From Siphonodentalium dalli (Eukaryota > Mollusca > Scaphopoda > Gadilida > Siphonodentaliidae), in contig CP136069.1 of the NCBI GenBank assembly GCA_032622095.1, forward strand, positions 104,560,278-104,624,277: 64,000 nucleotides of DNA, given 5' to 3'. The stretch's first letter is position 1. Each line of letters starts with the position of its first letter. The notes beneath the pieces are model-generated. The model was not told where the DNA came from and made no database searches. It saw only the letters and a program-made list of their open reading frames with translations. The translations under genes and the position numbers were made by a program. Below are positions 4,654-56,595 of the stretch, piece by piece.

Positions 4654-5342
4654 GAATAGCTTATTCCTGTACTTCCTGGTTATAGGGTCAATCCAACGTT
4701 TCCTTTCTAGTACTCACTAATACTACACGGCCCTATTTGAATCTACATTGGTGGGTCATCTTGGCACATTTGATTCTTCTGGTGCTTTCTATAAACAGCA
4801 TTGTCATGTGCTCTGGTCATCAAAGCGACTCTAGGTTTCCTACAAATTGTCTTTTGGTTCCAACAATTACATGTATGGTTCCCTATATGTCGGATTAGGT
4901 CAGTATTCTATACATTCAAATTCCTCTGGATGTATTACAGGGGTGGTGCAATCGACTATTTCAGCGAGAGTCTCTTACCGGTCACTAGTATAGATTCTCG
5001 GTCCATGATATCTCAATCCTTATCAACAATGGCATATCTCGGGTTACTGGGTGTCTGGGCTCTTTTTGAGCTTGTAGCCGTTTTTTCATCGGGCTAGATC
5101 TCGTACTTGGACTCTGCCTCCTCAAGAATTGACTTTGGGATTTATTCTATGGTTTTTATAGGGGTCTCCTTTGTCCTTTGAGGCCTTTGCCTCTGGTTGT
5201 TTCTCCATGTTCCTTATAAGGCTGGTTATTCCTTATAGTATTTGTCTACACATGGGGTAGCCCTTTAAATACATTATTGCAAAATCCTCAATTTTCATTT
5301 TCTATTTCATCAGGAAAATAGATATTTCTTCCCTTCCGGGGA

Positions 5343-5362
5343 GGGGGGGGGGGGGGGGGGGT
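5343..5362. repeat. Poly-G run, 20 bases
   Basis: A mononucleotide G run. Similar runs occur elsewhere in the window. It can form G-quadruplex structures, and its length is likely unstable or miscounted in sequencing. Confidence 0.9.
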
Positions 5363-5642
5363 TATACATTCCTTGTCCAGCAAAATACTCAGCTGATACA
5401 TTGATAGCTCTAAGCTCCTACTTTATTTGCAGGATATTCAATCCAAGTCACCACTATTTGTTTAGTTTGGGCCCTCTGGTAGCTGGCCAACATATATTAG
5501 TCTTCCGGTGTAATTACGTACATTGGCTTATGTGATATTGTATATATTGTAGGTTATCAGGTCAATCCAGTTCTTTGATTGAGGTGCGTAGAGGTGTTTA
5601 TTTTTCCTCGTGGCCTCCACCTGCCAGAAAATTCTATATTAT

Positions 5643-5775
5643 TGTCGTGGATATTTGTGTGTACTCGTTTGCGACGTAATTGGGTACTGTGACGTCATAT
5701 GGATGTGTGTGGTTACGGTGAAGTAAATGGCTACCTACACATAGCATAGTCTTTAATGTCTCTATTTCCGTGACA
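5643..5775 (+). repeat. 5' LTR, 133 bp
   Basis: It begins TGTCGTGGATATTT and ends TTTCCGTGACA. It is identical to 9287-9419. It contains a perfect CRE/ATF palindrome TGACGTCA at 5690-5697, which may be a promoter site. 133 bp is short for a BEL/Pao LTR. Confidence 0.93.
5690..5697. promoter_or_regulatory. CRE/ATF-type site TGACGTCA in the 5' LTR
   Basis: A perfect 8-bp palindrome that matches the CREB/ATF consensus; the copy in the 3' LTR is at 9334-9341. Its use as an enhancer of the retroelement promoter is an inference. Confidence 0.45.
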
Positions 5776-5780
5776 TAAAT

Positions 5781-5798
5781 TGGTCCCTCGAACCGGAA
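5781..5798 (+). other. Primer binding site for reverse transcription
   Basis: After a 5-base spacer (TAAAT) the sequence TGGTCCCTCGAACCGG follows the 5' LTR. It begins with the diagnostic TGG that pairs with a tRNA 3' CCA end. I do not assign the tRNA species. It ends just before the Gag start codon at 5801. Confidence 0.75.
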
Positions 5799-5800
5799 AG

Positions 5801-7063
5801 ATGTCGATCAAATCAGAACTTTCGCTTAAGGCTATACGGATGAAACGCAGAGCACAGAGAGGACACACCACGCGGTTGATCAAGGATGCTGATATCATGT
5901 TGAACGCCGATCAAGTCGACATGAAGTTTCTTAAGGACGTTTTGGCGATGTTAAACGAAAAAGTTTCTCTTCCTGTTGAAATGGATGATGCAGTTCTTAA
6001 TTTCTTGGTTGATGATGATTCTGAGTTCGACAGAGAATCTGATGATATAGAGAGATACATGAGAGAAATAAAGAGTCAACGTAATTCTTATGTGGCTTTC
6101 GTGGACATTCATGATGCTTGTCGGGTTGGTGCAAGAAGGCCTGTCGCTTCGCCGGAGAATGATCGTGTATGCAATGTTCGTCAAAGTGTTGCACTTCCCA
6201 AACTTTCATTGCCGTTATTTGAGGGCGTATTGGTGCAATGGCAACCATTTTGGGATTCGTTCCATGCTGTGGTGCATTCAGTTCCTGAAGACGAATTACC
6301 ATCGATTCAGAAATTTCAGTATTTACAATCGTTGTTGCGTGGACCTGCGGCAATGTGTGTTGATGGACTATCTTTGACAAAAGATAATTACTTTCATGCA
6401 ATTGCTGTTCTGAAAGAGAGATTCGGACAGACGCATAAAATTATACATGCACATTTGCAGTTGCCTCAAAATAATGTGCACAGTCTTGGTCAGTTTAGAG
6501 ATGTTATTGAGTCGAATATTCGATCTTTGGACGCGTTGGGACAAGGGACATCTTACAGTGACATGCTTTTTTCAATGTTAATTCAAAAGTTTCTGGCGAT
6601 TCAGCGTGGCAATTTGGTGCGTCGATATGGTAATCGCCAATTTTCATTGGAAGACATTAGAGAATTTTTGCGTCTTAAAGTTGATATATTAGATGCCGCT
6701 GAACAAAGTTCTTCTTACGAGCCCACAACTTCAACATTGACCGCACCATCCAACAGGTTTTCATTTAATCAAGTGAAGGATCCGACTGCTTTTCCAAAGG
6801 ATTCAAGTGTTCCAGTTTGCTCGTTTTGCGACGGCAAACATTTACCGGCGAACTGTTCGATGGGTATTAAAGAACGGCTTGATATTGTAAGGTATCGGAG
6901 ACTTTGTTACAATTGCCTTTCTAGTACACATCGATGTTCTGAATGTGTATCGCGCTTCCGTTGTAGACTTTGTTCAAGAAAACATCACACTAGTATATGT
7001 GAGTCGAGCAGTGCTAAAGATGGCATGTTAGTGGAATTTTTGGACGAGTTTCCGGTTATGTGA
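5801..7063 (+). CDS. Gag polyprotein of a BEL/Pao retrotransposon
   Basis: I chose the ATG at 5801 because the longer frame upstream only reads through the primer binding site. The product is 420 residues. Residues about 130-230 form the DUF1759 capsid-like domain, with a LPKLSLP...FWDSF opening and a LKERFG motif. Residues about 339-405 carry Cys/His zinc-knuckle clusters (CSFC, CYNC, CSEC, CRLC). The protein would assemble the cytoplasmic particle that packages the element RNA. The frame ends at a TGA (7061-7063). The next domain continues in the same frame with no further stop, so protease may be made by readthrough, or the TGA is a mutation. BEL/Pao elements usually have one uninterrupted Gag-Pol frame. 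Confidence 0.9.
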   Translation: MSIKSELSLKAIRMKRRAQRGHTTRLIKDADIMLNADQVDMKFLKDVLAMLNEKVSLPVEMDDAVLNFLVDDDSEFDRESDDIERYMREIKSQRNSYVAFVDIHDACRVGARRPVASPENDRVCNVRQSVALPKLSLPLFEGVLVQWQPFWDSFHAVVHSVPEDELPSIQKFQYLQSLLRGPAAMCVDGLSLTKDNYFHAIAVLKERFGQTHKIIHAHLQLPQNNVHSLGQFRDVIESNIRSLDALGQGTSYSDMLFSMLIQKFLAIQRGNLVRRYGNRQFSLEDIREFLRLKVDILDAAEQSSSYEPTTSTLTAPSNRFSFNQVKDPTAFPKDSSVPVCSFCDGKHLPANCSMGIKERLDIVRYRRLCYNCLSSTHRCSECVSRFRCRLCSRKHHTSICESSSAKDGMLVEFLDEFPVM

Positions 7064-7090
7064 CGAACAATCAGAGTTCATTACATTGTA

Positions 7091-8692
7091 ATGTCAAATC
7101 TGACAGTGGAAATAATGGTAACTATATCAACGGTGCTGTACTACCGACGGTTTTCGCATCATTACTCCTTGTTAAAAACTGCAATTTCAGATGTATCTTC
7201 CGGGACGACTACTATTGCAGCCAACATTCTGTTAGACGATGGTTCACAGACTTTTTTTATCAGACAGGGTTTCGCTGAAGAACTAGGGCTCGTACCGATT
7301 GGACAACGGGAGATAAGTATTTCGGCGTTTGGGTCCACGAGTTCTGACAAGCGTTATTTGAATGTCGCAAAAGTGAATCTCTTATGTGACAATGGTGCGA
7401 TTGAACTTGAACTCCTTATTGTTCCTACAATTTCTACACCACTGAACATTAAGTTGAACAAAAATATTAGACATTATCCTCATTTGAAAAGACTCAAATT
7501 AGCACATCCTGTTACCGGTGCTGATACGTTTAACATTGACATTTTAGTGGGAGCTGATTTTTATTACGATGTAGTGGAGGATACGCAAATAAGAGGAGTT
7601 GACGGGCCAGTGGCTGTTAAATCGAAAGTCGGTTTCTTGATTACAGGACCTGTCCGTAATCAGACAACTGCTGAAGTGTTGGAGATCACTGATTCCTCTA
7701 GTAAAGCAATTAGAGATGAAGTGATCAGGATGAAGGAAAAATTGCTCAACTCTTTCAAGGATCAAATGGAACTCAGGAAAAGTCTAATGGAATTGAACAA
7801 CGCATCGATGGAAGTTAGTCTGGAAACAAACAGAAACCAGCTAACTGTCAGCCATTTTGAAGTAGAGAAAACTAAAATGTTACGCAAACGAGAACAAGAT
7901 GGCACAGAGCCTGATGGAAAGATAAAAGATTTAGATAATGCCACGGACTTGGCTGGTTCTGACTTGCTACAAGACCCCGATGATGTCAAGACAGCTAGAG
8001 ATGAGCTGAAAGTACTACACGCAGAGAAACAGAAAACGGAGAAAATACGCATCACAATTCAGAAAGAACTAGAGGAGTCCAAATCAAGAACGGGGATATT
8101 GGAGGAGGGTATTCCCGGAACCATTAACAGTGTAGAACACCGAGAGATTCTTCAGCCTTTGTGTAGGGTACATGAGCTGGAGATGAAGAATATGGAATCT
8201 CATTCATCGTGTCTGCTGCGTGACTTCCAAATCAAAAAGAAAGATATGATCCTAACGCAGTATCGGACACACAGGAATCTGTGTGATGAAATCATACAAC
8301 AACAGAAAGTCCTCATTGATGACAACAACGTCGATACTCCAAAGGATCTCGATGAATTGTACGATCTCTATTTCTTGGAACGGAAGAACAAAATATTCCA
8401 AGCCGACGAATCTGACTCAAAAGAGATGTTGAGCTACACAAGACTGGCGCCGATACCAAGCAGCAAAAACGACGAGAAAATATTTACACCTAGTGCTAAA
8501 CTGAAGGATATGAAGCATTCCGAGAGCAAACCTAACTCCAAAGCAAGGCATAACCCTCCGTTAAACCAAATATGGAGAAATAACTCGTTTGTTAACCTGA
8601 ACTCTGGGAGAAATTCTCCGTCCACTCCCGGATCTAAAGCTTACTCTGATGATCCGCGAGTTCGGCCGACAGATGGCTCTTTGTTCGGTTAA
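7091..8692 (+). CDS. Fusion of BEL/Pao aspartic protease with KIF19 (kinesin-8) tail
   Basis: This 533-residue frame is in phase with Gag and separated from it only by the TGA at 7061. Residues about 35-200 are the retroelement protease (DUF1758-type). The active-site-like LLDDGSQ is at about residue 47, and the DILVGADFYYD and GFLITGPV blocks are typical of this family. From about residue 203 (nt 7700) the protein becomes the coiled-coil tail of KIF19, with MELRKSLMEL, LCRVHELE (about residue 356) and HRNLCDEII (about residue 393). The motor domain is absent. KIF19 acts at ciliary tips as a microtubule-depolymerising kinesin, so a motorless tail could dimerise with or compete with the host protein; that is inference. 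The frame stops at 8692, within the tail. Confidence 0.88.
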   Translation: MSNLTVEIMVTISTVLYYRRFSHHYSLLKTAISDVSSGTTTIAANILLDDGSQTFFIRQGFAEELGLVPIGQREISISAFGSTSSDKRYLNVAKVNLLCDNGAIELELLIVPTISTPLNIKLNKNIRHYPHLKRLKLAHPVTGADTFNIDILVGADFYYDVVEDTQIRGVDGPVAVKSKVGFLITGPVRNQTTAEVLEITDSSSKAIRDEVIRMKEKLLNSFKDQMELRKSLMELNNASMEVSLETNRNQLTVSHFEVEKTKMLRKREQDGTEPDGKIKDLDNATDLAGSDLLQDPDDVKTARDELKVLHAEKQKTEKIRITIQKELEESKSRTGILEEGIPGTINSVEHREILQPLCRVHELEMKNMESHSSCLLRDFQIKKKDMILTQYRTHRNLCDEIIQQQKVLIDDNNVDTPKDLDELYDLYFLERKNKIFQADESDSKEMLSYTRLAPIPSSKNDEKIFTPSAKLKDMKHSESKPNSKARHNPPLNQIWRNNSFVNLNSGRNSPSTPGSKAYSDDPRVRPTDGSLFG

Positions 8693-8697
8693 ATCCC

Positions 8698-9234
8698 TTG
8701 AATCGGAATCGATCACAGAGCCTATCTCCTGTTCCTAGGGCTTCACGCAAAGACGCTAATAGGTCAAGGACGGTAAGTCCAAAAAGCCCAACTGGATCTC
8801 TGAACTCTCTGGAGGAAAAGAGCGTAATTTCTGTGAGCACGCGTGGAATAGCTGCTCTGGCAGCGAAAAAGAAATCAAAAGTGCACGCTTCCAATTATGA
8901 GAGACAGAGAGTCAGTTGCCCACTTTTTCGGCCTGTTCGGGAGAATCCGGAAGAACGTGAGGACTATTTGTCACCAAGCAGGCTGGAGAGACACAATAGA
9001 ATATTCAGCGATCCGACAAGTTCACACGTGGCGGATCCTGATATTCAAACTAGCATGTTTCTTGACGATCGCAACAACCGACATGCAATCCACGAGGAGT
9101 ATAGTCGAAGTGGCGCAAGAAAAGCTGAATTGATGAGGCTTAGGAAGAACAGACCACCCGATAATGAGCGGCAGCATCAAAATAGACCTTCAGACATAAC
9201 ATCGGTAAGGACACTAAAGCGAAGACACGGATGA
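8698..9234 (+). pseudogene. Distal KIF19-tail coding segment, shifted by one frame
   Basis: This open segment (178 codons) starts five bases after the stop of the fusion frame but in another phase. It is rich in Ser, Arg and Lys, with SP-dipeptides and a GIAALAAKKKSK block, as expected for the basic, disordered C-terminal tail of a KIF19-type kinesin. The continuity of composition suggests a one-base indel near 8690. That would be either a mutation after capture or a sequencing error. The stop at 9232-9234 may be the captured gene's own stop. The region then returns to retroelement sequence before the 3' LTR. Confidence 0.65.
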
Positions 9235-9268
9235 TGAACTATATAAATGTTGCTAGAACTCAATTTAT

Positions 9269-9286
9269 CCCCTCCCCACCGGAGAA
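9269..9286 (+). other. Polypurine-tract position before the 3' LTR
   Basis: The bases directly 5' of the 3' LTR are CCCCTCCCCACCGGAGAA. Only the last six (GGAGAA) are purines, so this is a weak tract. The same short text encodes a PPEN-type ending in many BEL elements, which marks a return to retroelement sequence after the captured segment. Confidence 0.4.
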
Positions 9287-9419
9287 TGTCGTGGATATTT
9301 GTGTGTACTCGTTTGCGACGTAATTGGGTACTGTGACGTCATATGGATGTGTGTGGTTACGGTGAAGTAAATGGCTACCTACACATAGCATAGTCTTTAA
9401 TGTCTCTATTTCCGTGACA
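9287..9419 (+). repeat. 3' LTR, 133 bp
   Basis: Identical to the 5' LTR. It is followed at once by the target duplication ATTAT. Identity of the LTRs is the usual sign of a very recent insertion or recent gene conversion. Confidence 0.93.
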
Positions 9420-9423
9420 ATTA

Positions 9424-9787
9424 TACCATATAGTTCAGTGGGCAAGATACCTTTGACGGAGATACAATATTTTTCTAAATAAGTAAAATATATATCTCCT
9501 AGAAGTATCTTGCCCACTGAGCTCCCTCCCAGGGTTTCGCACCCACCCACCCCGCTCACGAGGAATGTCCTAATGGGGAAAAAGTGAGAATAACGATTTG
9601 GCGTCGAGTTTAAATGGACATTGGGAGATGACGTCATCAGAGGTTACCGGTCAGGAAACAGGATAAAATGTACCACAGAATTTTCGTTTGTTAACCCTTC
9701 CTTGTTAATATTGTGGATATACCATATAGTTCAGTGGGCAAGATACTTCTAGGAGATATATATTTTACTTGTTTAGAAAAATATTGT
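9424..9787. repeat. Right-side inverted repeats around GTTCAGTGGGCAAGATAC
   Basis: Three copies of the GTTCAGTGGGCAAGATAC block lie here in alternating orientation (about 9432, 9505 reversed, 9728). The span about 9577-9750 is the reverse complement of 1829-2021. The spans about 9455-9525 and 9720-9787 are also mutual inverted repeats. The structure looks like stacked terminal inverted repeats of one DNA transposon family. Confidence 0.6.
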
Positions 9788-9950
9788 TTCCTTCTTAATA
9801 TGCTTCCTTCACAAGGACCATCATGTCTATTTTATAAAAAGGCGCTTGTGAGATTGGAAATTTCCAACAATTGGGAAAGTTTGAGATGTCAATTGTGTAA
9901 TTCCAACCTAAGACTTGGGAGTCTGGAGCCCAGTCGGGAGGGGACTTGTT

Positions 9951-9976
9951 GGGGGGGGGGGGGGGGGGGGGGGGGG
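9951..9976. repeat. Poly-G run, 26 bases
   Basis: An uninterrupted G run just before the family B tail. Apparent polyglycine and polyproline reading frames across it are artefacts. Confidence 0.9.
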
Positions 9977-10121
9977 TAGTGTAGAGTTGGTAATTTGGCC
10001 ACATATCCTGTTTAGATCTACTTCTTTTAAAGTGATTATGAAAAGTTCTGACTGTTGTGGTCTCCAGAGTCCCAGTGTTTGCAGTCTGGTGAGCGACCCC
10101 ACAGTCATTGACTGTCTTGTT
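9977..10121 (+). mobile_element. Helentron-like family B, 3' end
   Basis: The segment ends with the hairpin ACAGTCATTGACTGT followed by CTTGTT, exactly as at 48867 and 53889. The preceding 'CTCCAGAGTCCCAGTGTTTG' text is also shared with those copies. The end abuts the truncated transposase frame at 10122. Confidence 0.6.
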
Positions 10122-10731
10122 ATATTGCCATTTTGATTCTATGAGAGATGTGATGTTTCCAGATAGGAATATTCTGAAAAAGTCTGTGCCAAAATCACAG
10201 AAAGGATTCAAGAATGTACGGTGTTCCATTGACTGCACTGAATTATATGTGCAGATGCCAAGAAATCTGGCAAGACAAAGTAATTTGTTTTCAAATTATA
10301 AACATCACCATACATTCAAATGCCTGATAGCTGTGGCCCCTAATGGAACAGCAGTGTTCGTGTCTGATCTTTATGAAGGAGCTATGAGTTACCGAGACAT
10401 ATTTCAGAAATGTGGAATTTTGAACCATCTCCATCCAGGTGATCTTATCCTGGTGGACAGGGGTTTTACTGTGGAGGATATACTGATGTCACGTCAAGTG
10501 CATATGAACATACCTCCATTTTTGATGGGTCATGATAAACTCACTGCTCAGGAGGAACTTCTGACCAGGAAGATCACTAAAGCACGAATACATGTTGAGA
10601 GGTTCAATGAACGAATCAAAAAGTTTCGTCTAATATCTGGCATCATGCCACTCAGTATGACACCGATGGCAACTCAAGTTGTTTTTATTGCCTGTTGTCT
10701 TGTAAACTTTCAAGACCAGTTGGCCAAGTAG
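10108..10731 (+). CDS. ISL2EU-type (Harbinger-related) DDE transposase, 5'-truncated
   Basis: The open frame is 207 codons, but its first residues come from the repeat tail that abuts at 10121; transposase similarity starts near 10126. The three catalytic acidic residues of a DDE_Tnp_4 domain are visible: Asp in SIDCTEL (about 10231), Asp in LVDRGF (about 10456) and Glu in HVERFNERIKKF (about 10596). The SNLFSNYKHHHTFKCLI block is typical of the family. The N-terminal DNA-binding region, often a THAP-type finger, is missing, so the protein is probably inactive. The minus-strand gene at 11342-12569 is the usual second gene of this transposon group. Confidence 0.85.
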   Translation: MTVLLYCHFDSMRDVMFPDRNILKKSVPKSQKGFKNVRCSIDCTELYVQMPRNLARQSNLFSNYKHHHTFKCLIAVAPNGTAVFVSDLYEGAMSYRDIFQKCGILNHLHPGDLILVDRGFTVEDILMSRQVHMNIPPFLMGHDKLTAQEELLTRKITKARIHVERFNERIKKFRLISGIMPLSMTPMATQVVFIACCLVNFQDQLAK

Positions 10732-25261: not shown

Positions 25262-25758
25262 ACATGTCATGTTACGAATCTCTATAGTCTGCATGTACTA
25301 AATGATAGAGAACAGAGTAGATATTCATGGCTTGCATGATCGATCTACCCCCCAGGTCAGGTCAGGTCAGGTCCAGTTAAAAGGTTTAAAATGATCTCAA
25401 ATAAAATTCCCCATACTGATAGAATGACATGTGTGAACAACCTGACAAATCAATATAATGATCAATATAACTGAAGCAGCATGAAACAAGTTAGATATTG
25501 CCAACCCACTCAAACAACTGTGTTCTAGTTTAATTACACACCCGGATGACAATGAAGGGTCACTCATTAATTTCTTGTTCAAAGGTATTCTTCATGAGCT
25601 GCTTAATTGCCATATAAATAAAACACAAATGTTCTGTTAAGATTATGTCTTTTCCAAGGATGTTGATGCATTATTTGAATATCTTGAAATTCCTTTTATT
25701 TATTTATTTATGATATGGCATGTAATATAATAATAACTCTGTTCTGGTCCATTGATAG

Positions 25759-26832
25759 GAGCATCAGAGAGAGCTCGAAACAGAATGCAGAGAAGCTCAA
25801 GCCTAAGCTCAAATGAGAGTCCAGTTCATAAACCATTCAGCGACGAACCTAAACCAACCAGTAAGCCTTCAACGAACAACATTGATAAAGAAACAACTAA
25901 GAAGTCAGAGCCTCCCACTGGCTCCTTCTTTGATACACTTGATTGGAAGGACAATTATGGATCTGTTCCTGATGAGCCTGTGGTGCCACATATAATCCAG
26001 GAAATGGAAATCAAGTTAATAGACAATGAAAGCTCAGATGATGAAGATTTCTCATCTTTATCAAATAATGCTGGTCAAATAAAGGAGAACAAATTTAATT
26101 CAATATTTGGAACTCATTTCAAATCACCCCCATGTCCTCCAACTACCCCGAATCCTCCTGAGCAGGATGCTGACCTTTTAAACATAGGTAGTGGCCCAAC
26201 TCAAAATGTCAACAGTTTCGTTGACAAATTAGACTTATTAAATATTGGCGGGAGCATTGCTGATGGTAGTTCTAGGAATTTAGACTTATTATCTGGTGGC
26301 GGCGGCACCTCAGACTTTGATTTCTTTGGACAAATGGACAGTATGAACAAACCATCTCAACCATCTAGTCAAACTACAGTAAAAAACAATACATTTGACC
26401 CATTCAAAGCTGCCGGAGACAAAACATCAGCAGGTAATGACTTCTTCAATATGATGGACAGTAATTCCAACAATCCCCCTGCTTCAAATGACTTAATTGG
26501 CAGCTGGGGATCAACTATAAAGACAAACATGACTTCGACAGGTTCAGGTGGCAGTGACAAGGACTTATTCAGTAATTGGAATTCAGGAAAAAATAACCAG
26601 TTCCAATCTGACATTCCAAAGAACAATAGTTTTAGTAGTTTTGGTTCTGCTGGAGTTCCTAGAAATAATAGTTTTAATAATTTATCGTCTGGAATGACTA
26701 CAAATATGCCGAAAACAAACAGTTTCAATAACTTGGACAGTGTGAATTCTTCTGGATGCAATGATGGTTTAAATCCAAATACCACAGAGGCACAGTCCAA
26801 TCAGATGAAAAATGACCCATTTGCAAACTTCG
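25759..26832 (+). CDS. Auxilin/GAK exon: clathrin- and adaptor-binding linker
   Basis: This 1074-nt exon lies between an acceptor (CATTGATAG) and a consensus donor (TTCG/GTAAGT). It encodes 358 residues in phase 1 and continues the exon at 16961. A FFDTLDW motif near residue 56 matches the conserved block after the C2 domain in GAK and auxilin. The rest is low-complexity and acidic, with repeated DLLNIG/DLLSGG motifs (clathrin-box-like), DPF motifs (two copies, AP2-ear-type) and FDFFG. Near the end, three related units PKNNSF, PRNNSF and PKTNSF follow each other. The linker would bind clathrin and AP2 on coated vesicles. The J-domain exons expected downstream were not found. Confidence 0.88.
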
Positions 26833-26867
26833 GTAAGTAATTATAAATTTTTAGACTCCCGTTTTTT

Positions 26868-40562: not shown

Positions 40563-42770
40563 ATGATGGATTCAATTTCAATTATGGATTCGTTATTATT
40601 AACAAATGAAGAGGCATTACAGGTGTTAGAGGAGTCGGACAGTGAAAGTGATTTTGGTGGATACGATTTTGATTTGTTAACAAATAAAGAGGCATTTGAC
40701 ATATTTAATTCGGACAGTGAAGCCAGTGATTTCAGTGGGTTCTATTCCGAGTCGGACGAGGAGCGAGATTTATCGGAAGATGAGAGTGATGGAGAAACAG
40801 TTGAAAACGGCACAGTAAATTCAAACTGTGCAAAGGTTGGCCCCATACTCCCGGACGGGTTTGAGAAAGTCACACCACTTGCTTATTTTGAACTGTTTAT
40901 GGAGGATGGCATATATGAACATATAGCAAAAAATACAAATGCATATGCCGAAATGATTACTTGTGAAAAGGGAGTGGGAGATCCCCGTTGGTCCCCAACA
41001 AATGGTGCCGAAATTCGGGCCTATTTCGGCCAAGTTATTCCGATTATTGGAGTAAGAATGAGTTCATGGGCAATGCTGGATTCCAGAAAGCGATGACGAA
41101 GGCGCGGTACGAAACGCTGACACAATACTTGCATTTGAATGTTGATGCAGCAAGAACACCGAGAATTGATCCAGATTACCACCCGATAAACAAAGTTAAG
41201 CCAATGTTTGATATGACCAGTAAAATTTTATGAAACATTTCAAACATTCCAAAGAGATCTCTATAGACGAAGCCATGTAGGGTTACAGAGGTCAATCGGA
41301 AATTAGACAGTATATGCCAAATAAACCCGACAAATTTGGTATCAAATTCTTAGCAACGTGCGATGGGAGGAATCATTTTATGTCTAAATATCAATTGTAT
41401 ACAGGTAAAAGAGATCGCACTGCTATCCAAAACCAATATGGTCTAGGCTATAGAGTTATTCGGGATATGAGCAGGGAGCTGACAAACAAAGGACATGTGT
41501 TATACTATGATAGGTACTTTACTGGGATTCCACTCATTCGTCACCTGAGAATTAAGGGATGGTCTACATAGCTGTGCCACTATTAACCTTAACAGAAAGG
41601 GTCTGCCGGACGAAGTTAAAAATAAGGCAGCTCTTAAGAAAGAAATTCCGTCAAGAGGTGCGGTATATTATATAGCCCAACAAGAAATGATAATTATACA
41701 TTAAGTAACACGATCTTCTTTCTAAATTGAAACAAAACTAAAGAAAACGTGTCTGATATGTTTGTAGGCCTACATGTAAAAAATAAAACAAAACACTATG
41801 TATATACATGTAACATTCAATAGTACATTATAATTTGCTTATCTTGTTGTGGCTTGCCATCGCTTGAATGTTACGATTTCGTACGGATATATACGCATAA
41901 GTATGTGTAGGCCTAAACTGTACATGTAAAGTGCAGCATATATGCTGTTAACTAGATATATATGATTTTATAAATTGAATTTAAAAGCTATGAAAAAGAT
42001 AAACATAAATTGAACAAAATTTCACAGGTTTATATATATATATGTATATATATATATGTTTTTCCCATCTGAAGAACCATGTCTGTAAGCAGTTTTGTTT
42101 TTAAGTTATTAAAATATACTGGTACGGTACGATATCTAAAACTCATTTTTCAGGTGACAGTGTAACATACCAGGAGCACCATAGTCGAATTGTCGCATGG
42201 AACGATAACAATATTGTTGTACTTGCACACAACCTGTCAGAGGCAGATGGTAGTTCTGTTTGTAAGAGGCGAGTTAATGGGCAATTAGTCGAGATTCCTC
42301 AACCTAATGCAATTAAATTGTATAATCAACATATGAACGGAGTGGATGTACATGACCAAATGCGAAAGAAGTACCCAAGCGGAAGATCATCAAAGAAATA
42401 TTTGAAGTTCATTATGTGGTTCATGGTTGATTGTAGTAGGGTCAACTCGGCTGTATGTTACAATTTGGTCTCTAAGAGAGTTATTAAAGGAAAGAAAGGG
42501 GTCAAGATGGACCAGAAGGACTTTATCCTTGAACTGGGAGAATTGCTCATTAATGGGTATACTTGTCGAAAACGACAGTGTTCCGATAAGCCCGGTGTTG
42601 GTAACCACATCAAACTAACACATATGCATGTAAAGCTTCCAGGAAAGCAGAAGCGCTGCAAATCTTGCTTTGCAAATCAAATTCGCAGGGAGACAGTGTA
42701 TGGATGTCCGACCTGTGACATACACTTATGTTCAGGCTGTTTCACCAAGAAACACTCAATTGAGTCATAA
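40563..42770 (+). pseudogene. piggyBac transposase, disrupted
   Basis: The protein starts at an ATG with an acidic N-terminal region (residues 1-80). It continues through PLAYFELFMED, WSKNEFMGNAGFQKAM and RYETLTQYLHLN. Catalytic-type Asp residues remain in SIDEAM (about 41266), YYDRYFTG (about 41509) and NGVDVHDQM (about 42345). A Cys-rich C-terminal domain follows (CKSC, CPTC, CSGC). Damage includes a frame change with a short deletion near 41035, another frame change near 41230, a TAG at 41278-41280, and a frame change near 41567. A probable phase-1 intron runs from 41658 (GAG/GTGCGG) to 42153 (TTTTTCAG). The gene cannot make an intact product. Confidence 0.85.
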
Positions 42771-55673: not shown

Positions 55674-56595
55674 GTCCGTCCGTGCGTCCGTACGTTCGTC
55701 CGATGTCTGTTCATGTCATAACTTGAACAGTAGTGCTCGAATCTCAATGAAATTAGGTATGGATGTTCACTACTATGAGGACATTAAATAGAGGTTTCCA
55801 TCGTTTAGTTCGGATTTTCCATTCTAGAGTTATTCATCTTTGTTTATCTGGAAATAGTGGCTTTTTGGTCTGTCTGGTGTCTGTTCATGTCGTAATTTCA
55901 ACAATTGTGCTGGGATCTCAATGGAATTTGGTATGGATGTCCACTGCTATGAGGACATCAAAAAGAGGGTTCCATCGTTTTGTTTGGATATTCCATTCTA
56001 GAGTTATACATCTTTGTTCATCTGGAAATGTTGGCTTTTTGGTCCGTCTGGTGTCTGTTCATGTTGTAACTTCAACAATTGTGCTGGGATCTCAATGGAA
56101 TTTGGTATGGATGTTCACTGCTATGAGCATATTCAATAGGGGGTTCCATTGTTTTGCACCTCTCTTCCTTTCTAGAGTTATTCATCTTTGTTCATCTGGA
56201 AATATTGGCTTTTTAGTCCGTCTGGTGTCTGTTCATGTTGTAACTTCAACAATTTGCTGGGATCTCAATGGAATTTGGTATGGATGTTCACTGCTATAAG
56301 GATATTCAATAGGGGGTTCCATTGTTCTGTTCCGCTTTTCCATTCTAGAGTTATTCATCTTTGTTTATCTGGAAATGTTGGTTGTTTGGTCCATCCGATG
56401 TCTGTTCAGCTCATAACTTGAACAGTAATGCTCGGAACTCAATGAAATTTTGTATGGATGTTCACCACTATGAGGACATTTAATGGCACATTTAAAAGTT
56501 TGTTTGGTTTTTTGTTCTATAGTTATCTTTGTTTATATGAAAATGCTGATTTCTGGGGCCATATGTCTGAGTATAGCCATCATAAGTTATAGATG
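55674..56595 (+). repeat. Tandem repeat, five units of about 175 bp
   Basis: Units contain ATGTCTGTTCATGTC, CTCAATGGAATTTGGTATGG and CTAGAGTTATTCATCTTTG. Because the period is close to a multiple of three, a 178-codon frame runs through several units; I regard that frame as non-coding. A CCGTCCGTGCGTCCGT tract begins the array, as in the Helentron-like families. Confidence 0.8.

What the first reader, a model, noticed from the sequence alone, without database searches (positions are those of the whole stretch)
5643..9419. A retrotransposon has captured a kinesin: BEL/Pao Gag-protease fused to a KIF19 tail
The sequence shows identical LTRs, a 5-bp target duplication, a primer binding site, BEL/Pao Gag and protease, and then about 1.5 kb that matches the KIF19 (kinesin-8) tail in motif order (MELRKSLMEL, LCRVHELE, HRNLCDEII). 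Reverse transcriptase, RNase H and integrase are absent. The captured part has no introns and is in frame with the protease. This is the layout of an acute transforming retrovirus, in which viral replication genes are replaced by host cDNA, but in an invertebrate LTR retrotransposon. I know of no described BEL/Pao element carrying a kinesin; that is a statement about my memory and not a search result.
Basis: partly seen in the sequence, partly recalled or inferred. Interest (0 to 1): 0.93.

Follow-up and report, generated by a model that had tools for sequence, protein, structure and literature searches.

The report
Retrotransposon that captured a kinesin tail
A mollusc-like genome holds a recently inserted jumping element whose copying enzymes have been replaced by a spliced copy of the tail of a host motor protein (KIF19); the process is known from other elements, but this is a clean new animal example.

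Summary
The observation largely holds. At 5643-9419 there are two identical 133-bp LTRs with a 5-bp duplication ATTAT, a BEL/Pao-type Gag (DUF1759, E 5.8e-29) and protease (DUF1758, E 4.6e-5), then about 1.55 kb of KIF19 tail. A search with the tail gave 31 proteins: 31 of 31 carry a kinesin motor domain, 21 are named KIF19 or KIF18_19, 23 come from named molluscs (best E 2.7e-75, Haliotis). Of 2918 six-frame window pieces one matched a KIF19-tail profile; of 200 shuffles, none.

Corrections: an in-frame TGA (7061) separates Gag from protease. The kinesin part is not one frame to 9234: frame A stops at 8690, frame B carries the C-tail, and the stretch between two landmarks is 57-74 codons too long. 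Kinesin similarity probably begins near 7670.

Best explanation: a non-autonomous BEL/Pao derivative made by RNA-level recombination with KIF19 RNA and inserted as a unit by helper proteins. No stop in 503 kinesin codons outside the frame-change zone caps neutral drift since capture at about 5%. Maize Bs1 and metazoan LTR-mediated retroposition are the known kind. Copy number, the host's own KIF19 and expression are unseen: the genome search did not complete (10 tries).

The parts
5638..5642 (.). target-site duplication ATTAT, left copy
5643..5775 (+). 5' LTR, TG...CA
   Evidence: 133/133 identical to the 3' LTR
5781..5796 (+). primer-binding-site-like stretch beginning TGG, 5 bases after the LTR
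   Evidence: sequence; not tested against any tRNA
5801..7063 (+). Gag, BEL/Pao type, with three zinc-knuckle-like motifs; ends in TGA
   Evidence: DUF1759 E 5.8e-29; knuckle-like motifs at 6818, 6905, 6962; 5 Gag relatives at E<=1e-3
7064..7669 (+). protease, same frame as Gag but after the TGA; first ATG 7091; GPV at 7646-7654
   Evidence: DUF1758 E 4.6e-5, 23.6 bits, cut-off 22
7655..7669 (+). 5' junction zone between protease and KIF19 sequence
   Evidence: KIF19-like motif AEVLE begins at 7670
7670..8652 (+). KIF19 tail, frame A (frame stops at 8690-8692)
8653..8703 (+). zone in which the KIF19 reading frame changes; the wider stretch 8489-8851 is 57-74 codons longer than in 16 measured orthologs (insertion, retained intron or host peculiarity)
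8704..9234 (+). KIF19 C-terminal tail, frame B; the last 25-40 residues of most orthologs are missing; donor-like GTAAGG at 9205
   Evidence: hmmsearch E 1.6e-23
9235..9286 (+). last 52 bases before the 3' LTR; presumably the 3' end of the element; no clear polypurine tract
9287..9419 (+). 3' LTR
9420..9424 (.). target-site duplication ATTAT, right copy

Best explanation
This is a non-autonomous derivative of a BEL/Pao LTR retrotransposon. Its pol region downstream of the protease (reverse transcriptase, RNase H, integrase) was replaced by an RNA-derived copy of the tail of KIF19, a host kinesin-8. The likely steps are: KIF19 RNA was packaged with, or read through from, BEL/Pao RNA (inferred); reverse transcriptase switched templates so that KIF19 cDNA lay between the protease and the 3' end (inferred); the product was inserted with its LTRs and a 5-bp duplication by proteins supplied by an intact relative (insertion as a unit is shown by the sequence, the helper is inferred). 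The capture is recent compared with the divergence of the kinesin sequence from known molluscs. As it stands the copy could make Gag. A protease-kinesin protein would need translation to start past the Gag stop, or readthrough, and it would lack the KIF19 C-terminal part. It is probably not a working gene.
For: LTRs 133/133 identical plus 5-bp TSD. Gag and protease domains. KIF19: 31 hits, 31 of 31 with a kinesin motor domain, 21 named KIF19/KIF18_19, 5 named otherwise, 5 unnamed; an earlier narrower search gave 7 of 7 kinesin-motor proteins and no other tail-without-motor fusion within its length limits. One match in 2918 six-frame pieces of the window, 0 of 200 shuffles of 7703-8410. The protein similarity runs on without an intron-like break across places where the models P0007 and P0033 show probable errors at exon edges. 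Of the runs of 6-14 bases sought between 7640-7690 and 9191-9290 the longest shared was 6, and no poly(A) is seen at the end of the kinesin piece, against a LINE-type insertion into the element. No stop in 503 kinesin codons read in frames A and B outside the frame-change zone: neutral divergence since capture at most about 5%.
Against: No second copy, no parental KIF19 gene, no reads and no transcript were seen, because the genome search did not complete. The polypurine tract is poor, so plus-strand priming in this copy is unexplained. The captured tail has the longest end branch (0.72), the most changes at sites conserved in molluscs (6 of 58; 0-4 in the 27 other rows of that count) and the most private residues at variable sites (30 of 177; at most 18 in the others); that could also mean longer evolution inside the element. 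Intronlessness is inferred from proteins, not from a KIF19 gene, and the over-long stretch 8489-8851 could be a retained intron.
Confidence: 0.85

Rival explanations
1. A sub-variant of the best explanation, capture by the retroviral oncogene route: a BEL/Pao copy sat inside or upstream of KIF19, a read-through RNA was spliced from the protease region into a KIF19 exon, and a later switch added the 3' end. (The confidence is that of this route, given a capture.)
For: KIF19 similarity begins at AEVLE, where a Mytilus edulis model (P0007) lacks four residues that its congener P0018 has, a hint of an exon edge. A donor-like GTAAGG at 9205 sits near where the KIF19 C-terminal coding similarity ends and where the Patella isoform P0001 has another C-terminus than the other rows, a hint that the RNA ran into an unspliced intron.
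Against: GT(A/G)AG occurs 6 times in the 3777-bp element, about what chance gives (7.4 for equal base use, my arithmetic), so one of them near the end is weak. No gene structure of KIF19 was available.
Confidence: 0.3
2. Assembly chimera: the KIF19 cDNA (or a KIF19 retrocopy elsewhere) was joined to a BEL/Pao element by the assembler.
For: Only one assembly was seen; long G runs at about 5338 and 9952 flank the element.
Against: Both G runs lie outside the LTRs. The target duplication matches across the whole unit. The kinesin piece is in frame with the protease.
Confidence: 0.06
3. A LINE-made KIF19 retrocopy landed inside an existing BEL/Pao element.
For: RNA-derived host sequence inside a mobile element.
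Against: No poly(A), no flanking duplication longer than 6 bases, no RT-RNase H-integrase part on either side of the kinesin piece, and the fusion is in frame.
Confidence: 0.03
4. An old BEL/Pao gene: the kinesin tail has been a stable, useful part of a non-autonomous lineage for a long time.
For: Longest end branch (0.72), most changed conserved sites (6 of 58) and most private residues (30 of 177) of the rows, with no stop in 503 kinesin codons.
Against: 7 of 7 and 31 of 31 database hits carry the motor domain, so no other fusion was found in that database within the length limits. The frame is broken in this copy. From the same fork the five heterobranch rows have summed branches of 0.70-0.78 (my sums from the tree), so the length alone is not odd.
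Confidence: 0.1

Closest known systems
LTR-mediated retroposition in metazoans (Tan et al. 2016, known to me here only through passages of the review PMC5408686; the paper itself is not held)
   Same: Host mRNA joined to LTR-element sequence by template switching, intronless, inserted with the element's own machinery.
   Different: Here the host piece is in frame with the protease and stands in place of the rest of pol; BEL/Pao-type carrier and kinesin cargo. Whether Tan's set holds BEL/Pao carriers could not be read.
Bs1 retrotransposon of maize (passages of PMC5408686 and PMC13317346)
   Same: LTR element carrying host gene pieces as a hybrid reading frame (that Bs1 lacks RT is recalled).
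   Different: Plant element, pieces of three host genes, transcription and translation reported; here one host gene, one copy seen, frame broken, expression unknown.
Acute transforming retroviruses (recalled)
   Same: Host cDNA replaces replication genes, so a helper is needed.
   Different: No envelope gene seen, no evidence of a growth-driving product; the frame is broken.
Retroelements that took up a viral envelope gene (Atlas virus of hookworm, PMC9094657; [quoted passage not shown] starts of abstracts in search listings only; that these are BEL/Pao elements is recalled)
   Same: Such elements acquire foreign genes.
   Different: Those genes are viral; here a host gene stands in place of pol.

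Membership tests
BEL/Pao (Belpaoviridae) | LTRs TG...CA with a short target duplication | tested here: met
BEL/Pao (Belpaoviridae) | Gag of DUF1759 type and protease of DUF1758 type (family link recalled) | tested here: met
   Gag relatives
BEL/Pao (Belpaoviridae) | RT, RNase H and integrase after the protease | tested here: not met
   no such domain in 7 of the 8 ORFs of 80 aa or more that overlap the element; hence 'derivative of BEL/Pao', not a full member
BEL/Pao (Belpaoviridae) | tRNA primer binding site and polypurine tract | tested here: inconclusive
   TGG stretch at 5781 untested against a tRNA (ARAGORN found none in the window); weak polypurine tract
KIF19 (kinesin-8) | tail sequence closer to KIF19 than to other proteins searched | tested here: met
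KIF19 (kinesin-8) | motor domain | tested here: not met
   no motor domain in the element's ORFs; the similarity begins after the motor: a piece of a kinesin. The rest of the window was not searched for a motor.
LTR-mediated retrocopy | intronless host cDNA between LTRs of one insertion | tested here: met
   intron loss inferred from proteins; the stretch 8489-8851 is over-long
LTR-mediated retrocopy | short matches between element and parental mRNA at the junctions | not testable with these tools
   neither the host KIF19 mRNA nor an intact relative of the element was available
Acute-transforming-retrovirus-like transducer | transmitted as a lineage of copies with a helper, product active | not tested
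   the genome search did not complete; frame broken in this copy

The most novel reading that the evidence does not exclude
A transducing lineage: several copies of a BEL/Pao element move the KIF19 tail around a mollusc genome with the help of intact relatives, and some copies make a particle protein fused to a kinesin tail, which could interfere with ciliary KIF19 or tie the particles to microtubules.
Probability: 0.12. Interest if true: 0.85.

Novelty: new member of a known kind. Interest (0 to 1): 0.5.

Why it matters
It is a young, well-bounded animal case of an LTR element that swapped its own replication genes for host cDNA, the step that in vertebrate retroviruses gave the acute transforming viruses (recalled). 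Because both junctions, both LTRs and the target duplication are preserved, the route of capture (template switching or read-through with splicing) becomes testable once the host's KIF19 gene and an intact relative of the element are at hand. Eight paper searches ran. No held paper has both 'LTR retrotransposon' and 'KIF19', and no title or abstract start in the lists reports a kinesin carried by a BEL/Pao element; two of those lists were cut short (20 of 77, 25 of 235), and most subscription papers are not in that library.

Tried and rejected
Similarity by chance or by composition: rejected (0 of 200 shuffles, 1 of 2918 window pieces). Solved structures: 2 hits, E 0.067 and 0.78, de novo designs, no use. 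No Pfam model reached its cut-off on the tail. Other copies in the window: none, only matches of 13-34 bases, best E 0.023. IMG/VR for Gag and for protease-kinesin, GTDB contigs for the tail: no relative; neither collection is one of animal genomes. Host identity: not found; the captured tail falls at the base of the gastropod rows with weak support (86/71) on a long branch, so I say only 'mollusc-like'. P0007 was left out of that tree because its gene model is faulty in this stretch. In the length comparison, 16 of the 26 rows printed could be measured; in 10 the first landmark was not found. Internal duplication as the cause of the longer stretch 8489-8851: no support (only 9-base matches). 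I did not fold the protein.

Full report
What is there. The interval 5643-9419 looks like a single inserted unit: identical 133-bp direct LTRs, TG...CA ends, and the pentamer ATTAT on both sides. Inside lie a Gag of the DUF1759 family (E 5.8e-29) with three zinc-knuckle-like motifs and a DUF1758 protease (E 4.6e-5, just above the curated cut-off). These two Pfam families are the ones I recall for BEL/Pao. Five Gag relatives were found at E<=1e-3 of 3480 candidates, one of them from the clam Ruditapes philippinarum.

The kinesin. The 329 residues coded by 7703-8689 match 7 proteins at E<=1e-3 of 2259 candidates, 7 of 7 with kinesin motor domains. With a query of full kinesin length, 31 proteins of 2998 candidates matched; 31 of 31 carry the motor domain PF00225, 21 are named KIF19 or KIF18_19, 5 bear other names and 5 none; 23 are from named molluscs, 3 from a nemertean and two fishes. 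The best is KIF19 of Haliotis cracherodii (E 2.7e-75, 49% over 96%). A tail profile of 30 orthologs hits one of 2918 six-frame pieces of the window (E 1.6e-92) and none of 200 shuffles of the captured sequence. So the window holds no other KIF19-tail piece; the motor domain was sought only in the ORFs scanned. The kinesin claim stands beyond reasonable doubt.

Borders. Orthologs have a motif like (A/S)EV(L/V/M)E before the conserved tail; in the window AEVLE begins at 7670, right after the protease's GPVRNQTT. The 5' junction is therefore most likely in 7655-7669. The 3' limit of similarity is about 9205-9234; the final 25-40 residues of most orthologs (PTIPxYRKGDI...) are missing.

Frames. 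Gag ends in TGA at 7061-7063; the protease continues in the same frame, so this is either a lesion or a readthrough stop. In the relative P0008 Gag runs into protease without a stop (sequence, match). In the kinesin part frame A stops at 8690-8692, and similarity goes on in frame B (E 1.6e-23). Between the landmarks xSAK and AALAA the captured copy spans 120.7 codons, against 47-64 in the 16 orthologs that could be measured (10 of 26 could not). The extra length could be retained intron, insertion or a peculiarity of the host gene; I did not try to mend it.

Age. Two LTRs without a difference in 133 bp mean a young insertion. Zero stops in 503 kinesin codons (frame A 7670-8651 and frame B 8704-9231, the zone between them left out), at 56 expected per unit of neutral divergence, cap the neutral divergence since capture at about 5%, unless selection kept it open. 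On a tree of 31 rows (30 of the 31 database hits plus the captured tail; P0007 left out) the tail sits at the base of the gastropod rows with weak support (86/71) and the longest end branch, 0.72. The five heterobranch rows have summed branches of 0.70-0.78 from the same fork (my sums). It changes 6 of 58 sites conserved in molluscs (0-4 in the 27 other rows counted) and has private residues at 30 of 177 variable sites (at most 18 in the others), the highest on both counts. I read this as a gene that evolved mostly as a host gene in an unsampled mollusc-like lineage, then was captured recently, with perhaps some relaxed change since; a longer stay in the element is not excluded.

How it works. 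Shown by the sequence: one insertion event of the composite. Inferred: packaging of KIF19 RNA and template switching, or read-through with splicing; trans-mobilisation by an intact relative, since no RT, RNase H or integrase was found. Hints for the splicing route are an exon-edge signature of the Mytilus edulis gene model at the 5' junction and a donor-like GTAAGG at 9205. Such donor-like words occur six times in the element, so these hints are weak. A LINE retrocopy inside the element is disfavoured: no poly(A), no flanking repeat above 6 bases, pol missing.

Known or new. LTR-mediated retroposition is described for invertebrates and vertebrates, and Bs1 in maize carries pieces of three host genes (passages read: PMC5408686; PMC8232201; PMC13317346; Tan et al. 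2016 itself not held). No held paper has both 'LTR retrotransposon' and 'KIF19'. So this is a new, unusually clean member of a known kind, with a carrier and a cargo that I saw reported nowhere in the listings of my eight searches.

Limits. The host genome, its KIF19 gene, other copies, reads and RNA were not seen. Eukaryotic genomes may not be held by the genome tool at all, and it did not complete (10 tries).

Noticed in passing
window 9422-9790: Inverted repeat arms of 63 bases (9461-9523 and 9728-9790, 95% complementary) and a 29-base direct repeat (9422-9450, 9718-9746) directly beside the element: a MITE-like structure; the element's target site abuts it.
   Followed up: no
window 10108-10731: Transposase piece of the DDE_Tnp_4 (Harbinger-type, name recalled) family, E 7.9e-42.
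   Followed up: partly
window 40563-42770: Pieces of a DDE_Tnp_1_7 (piggyBac-type, name recalled) transposase in two ORFs (E 2.8e-7, and 3.7e-4 below Pfam's cut-off).
   Followed up: partly
window 5338-5364 and 9952-9978: Long G runs on both sides of the element, possible weak points of the assembly, but outside the LTRs.
   Followed up: no
window 25752-26840: Exon-like ORF of 362 aa rich in N and S, no Pfam match at E<=0.1; resembles a cyclin-G-associated kinase segment from memory only.
   Followed up: partly
window 55763-56299: ORF with an internally repeated protein sequence, no Pfam match that reaches its cut-off.
   Followed up: no
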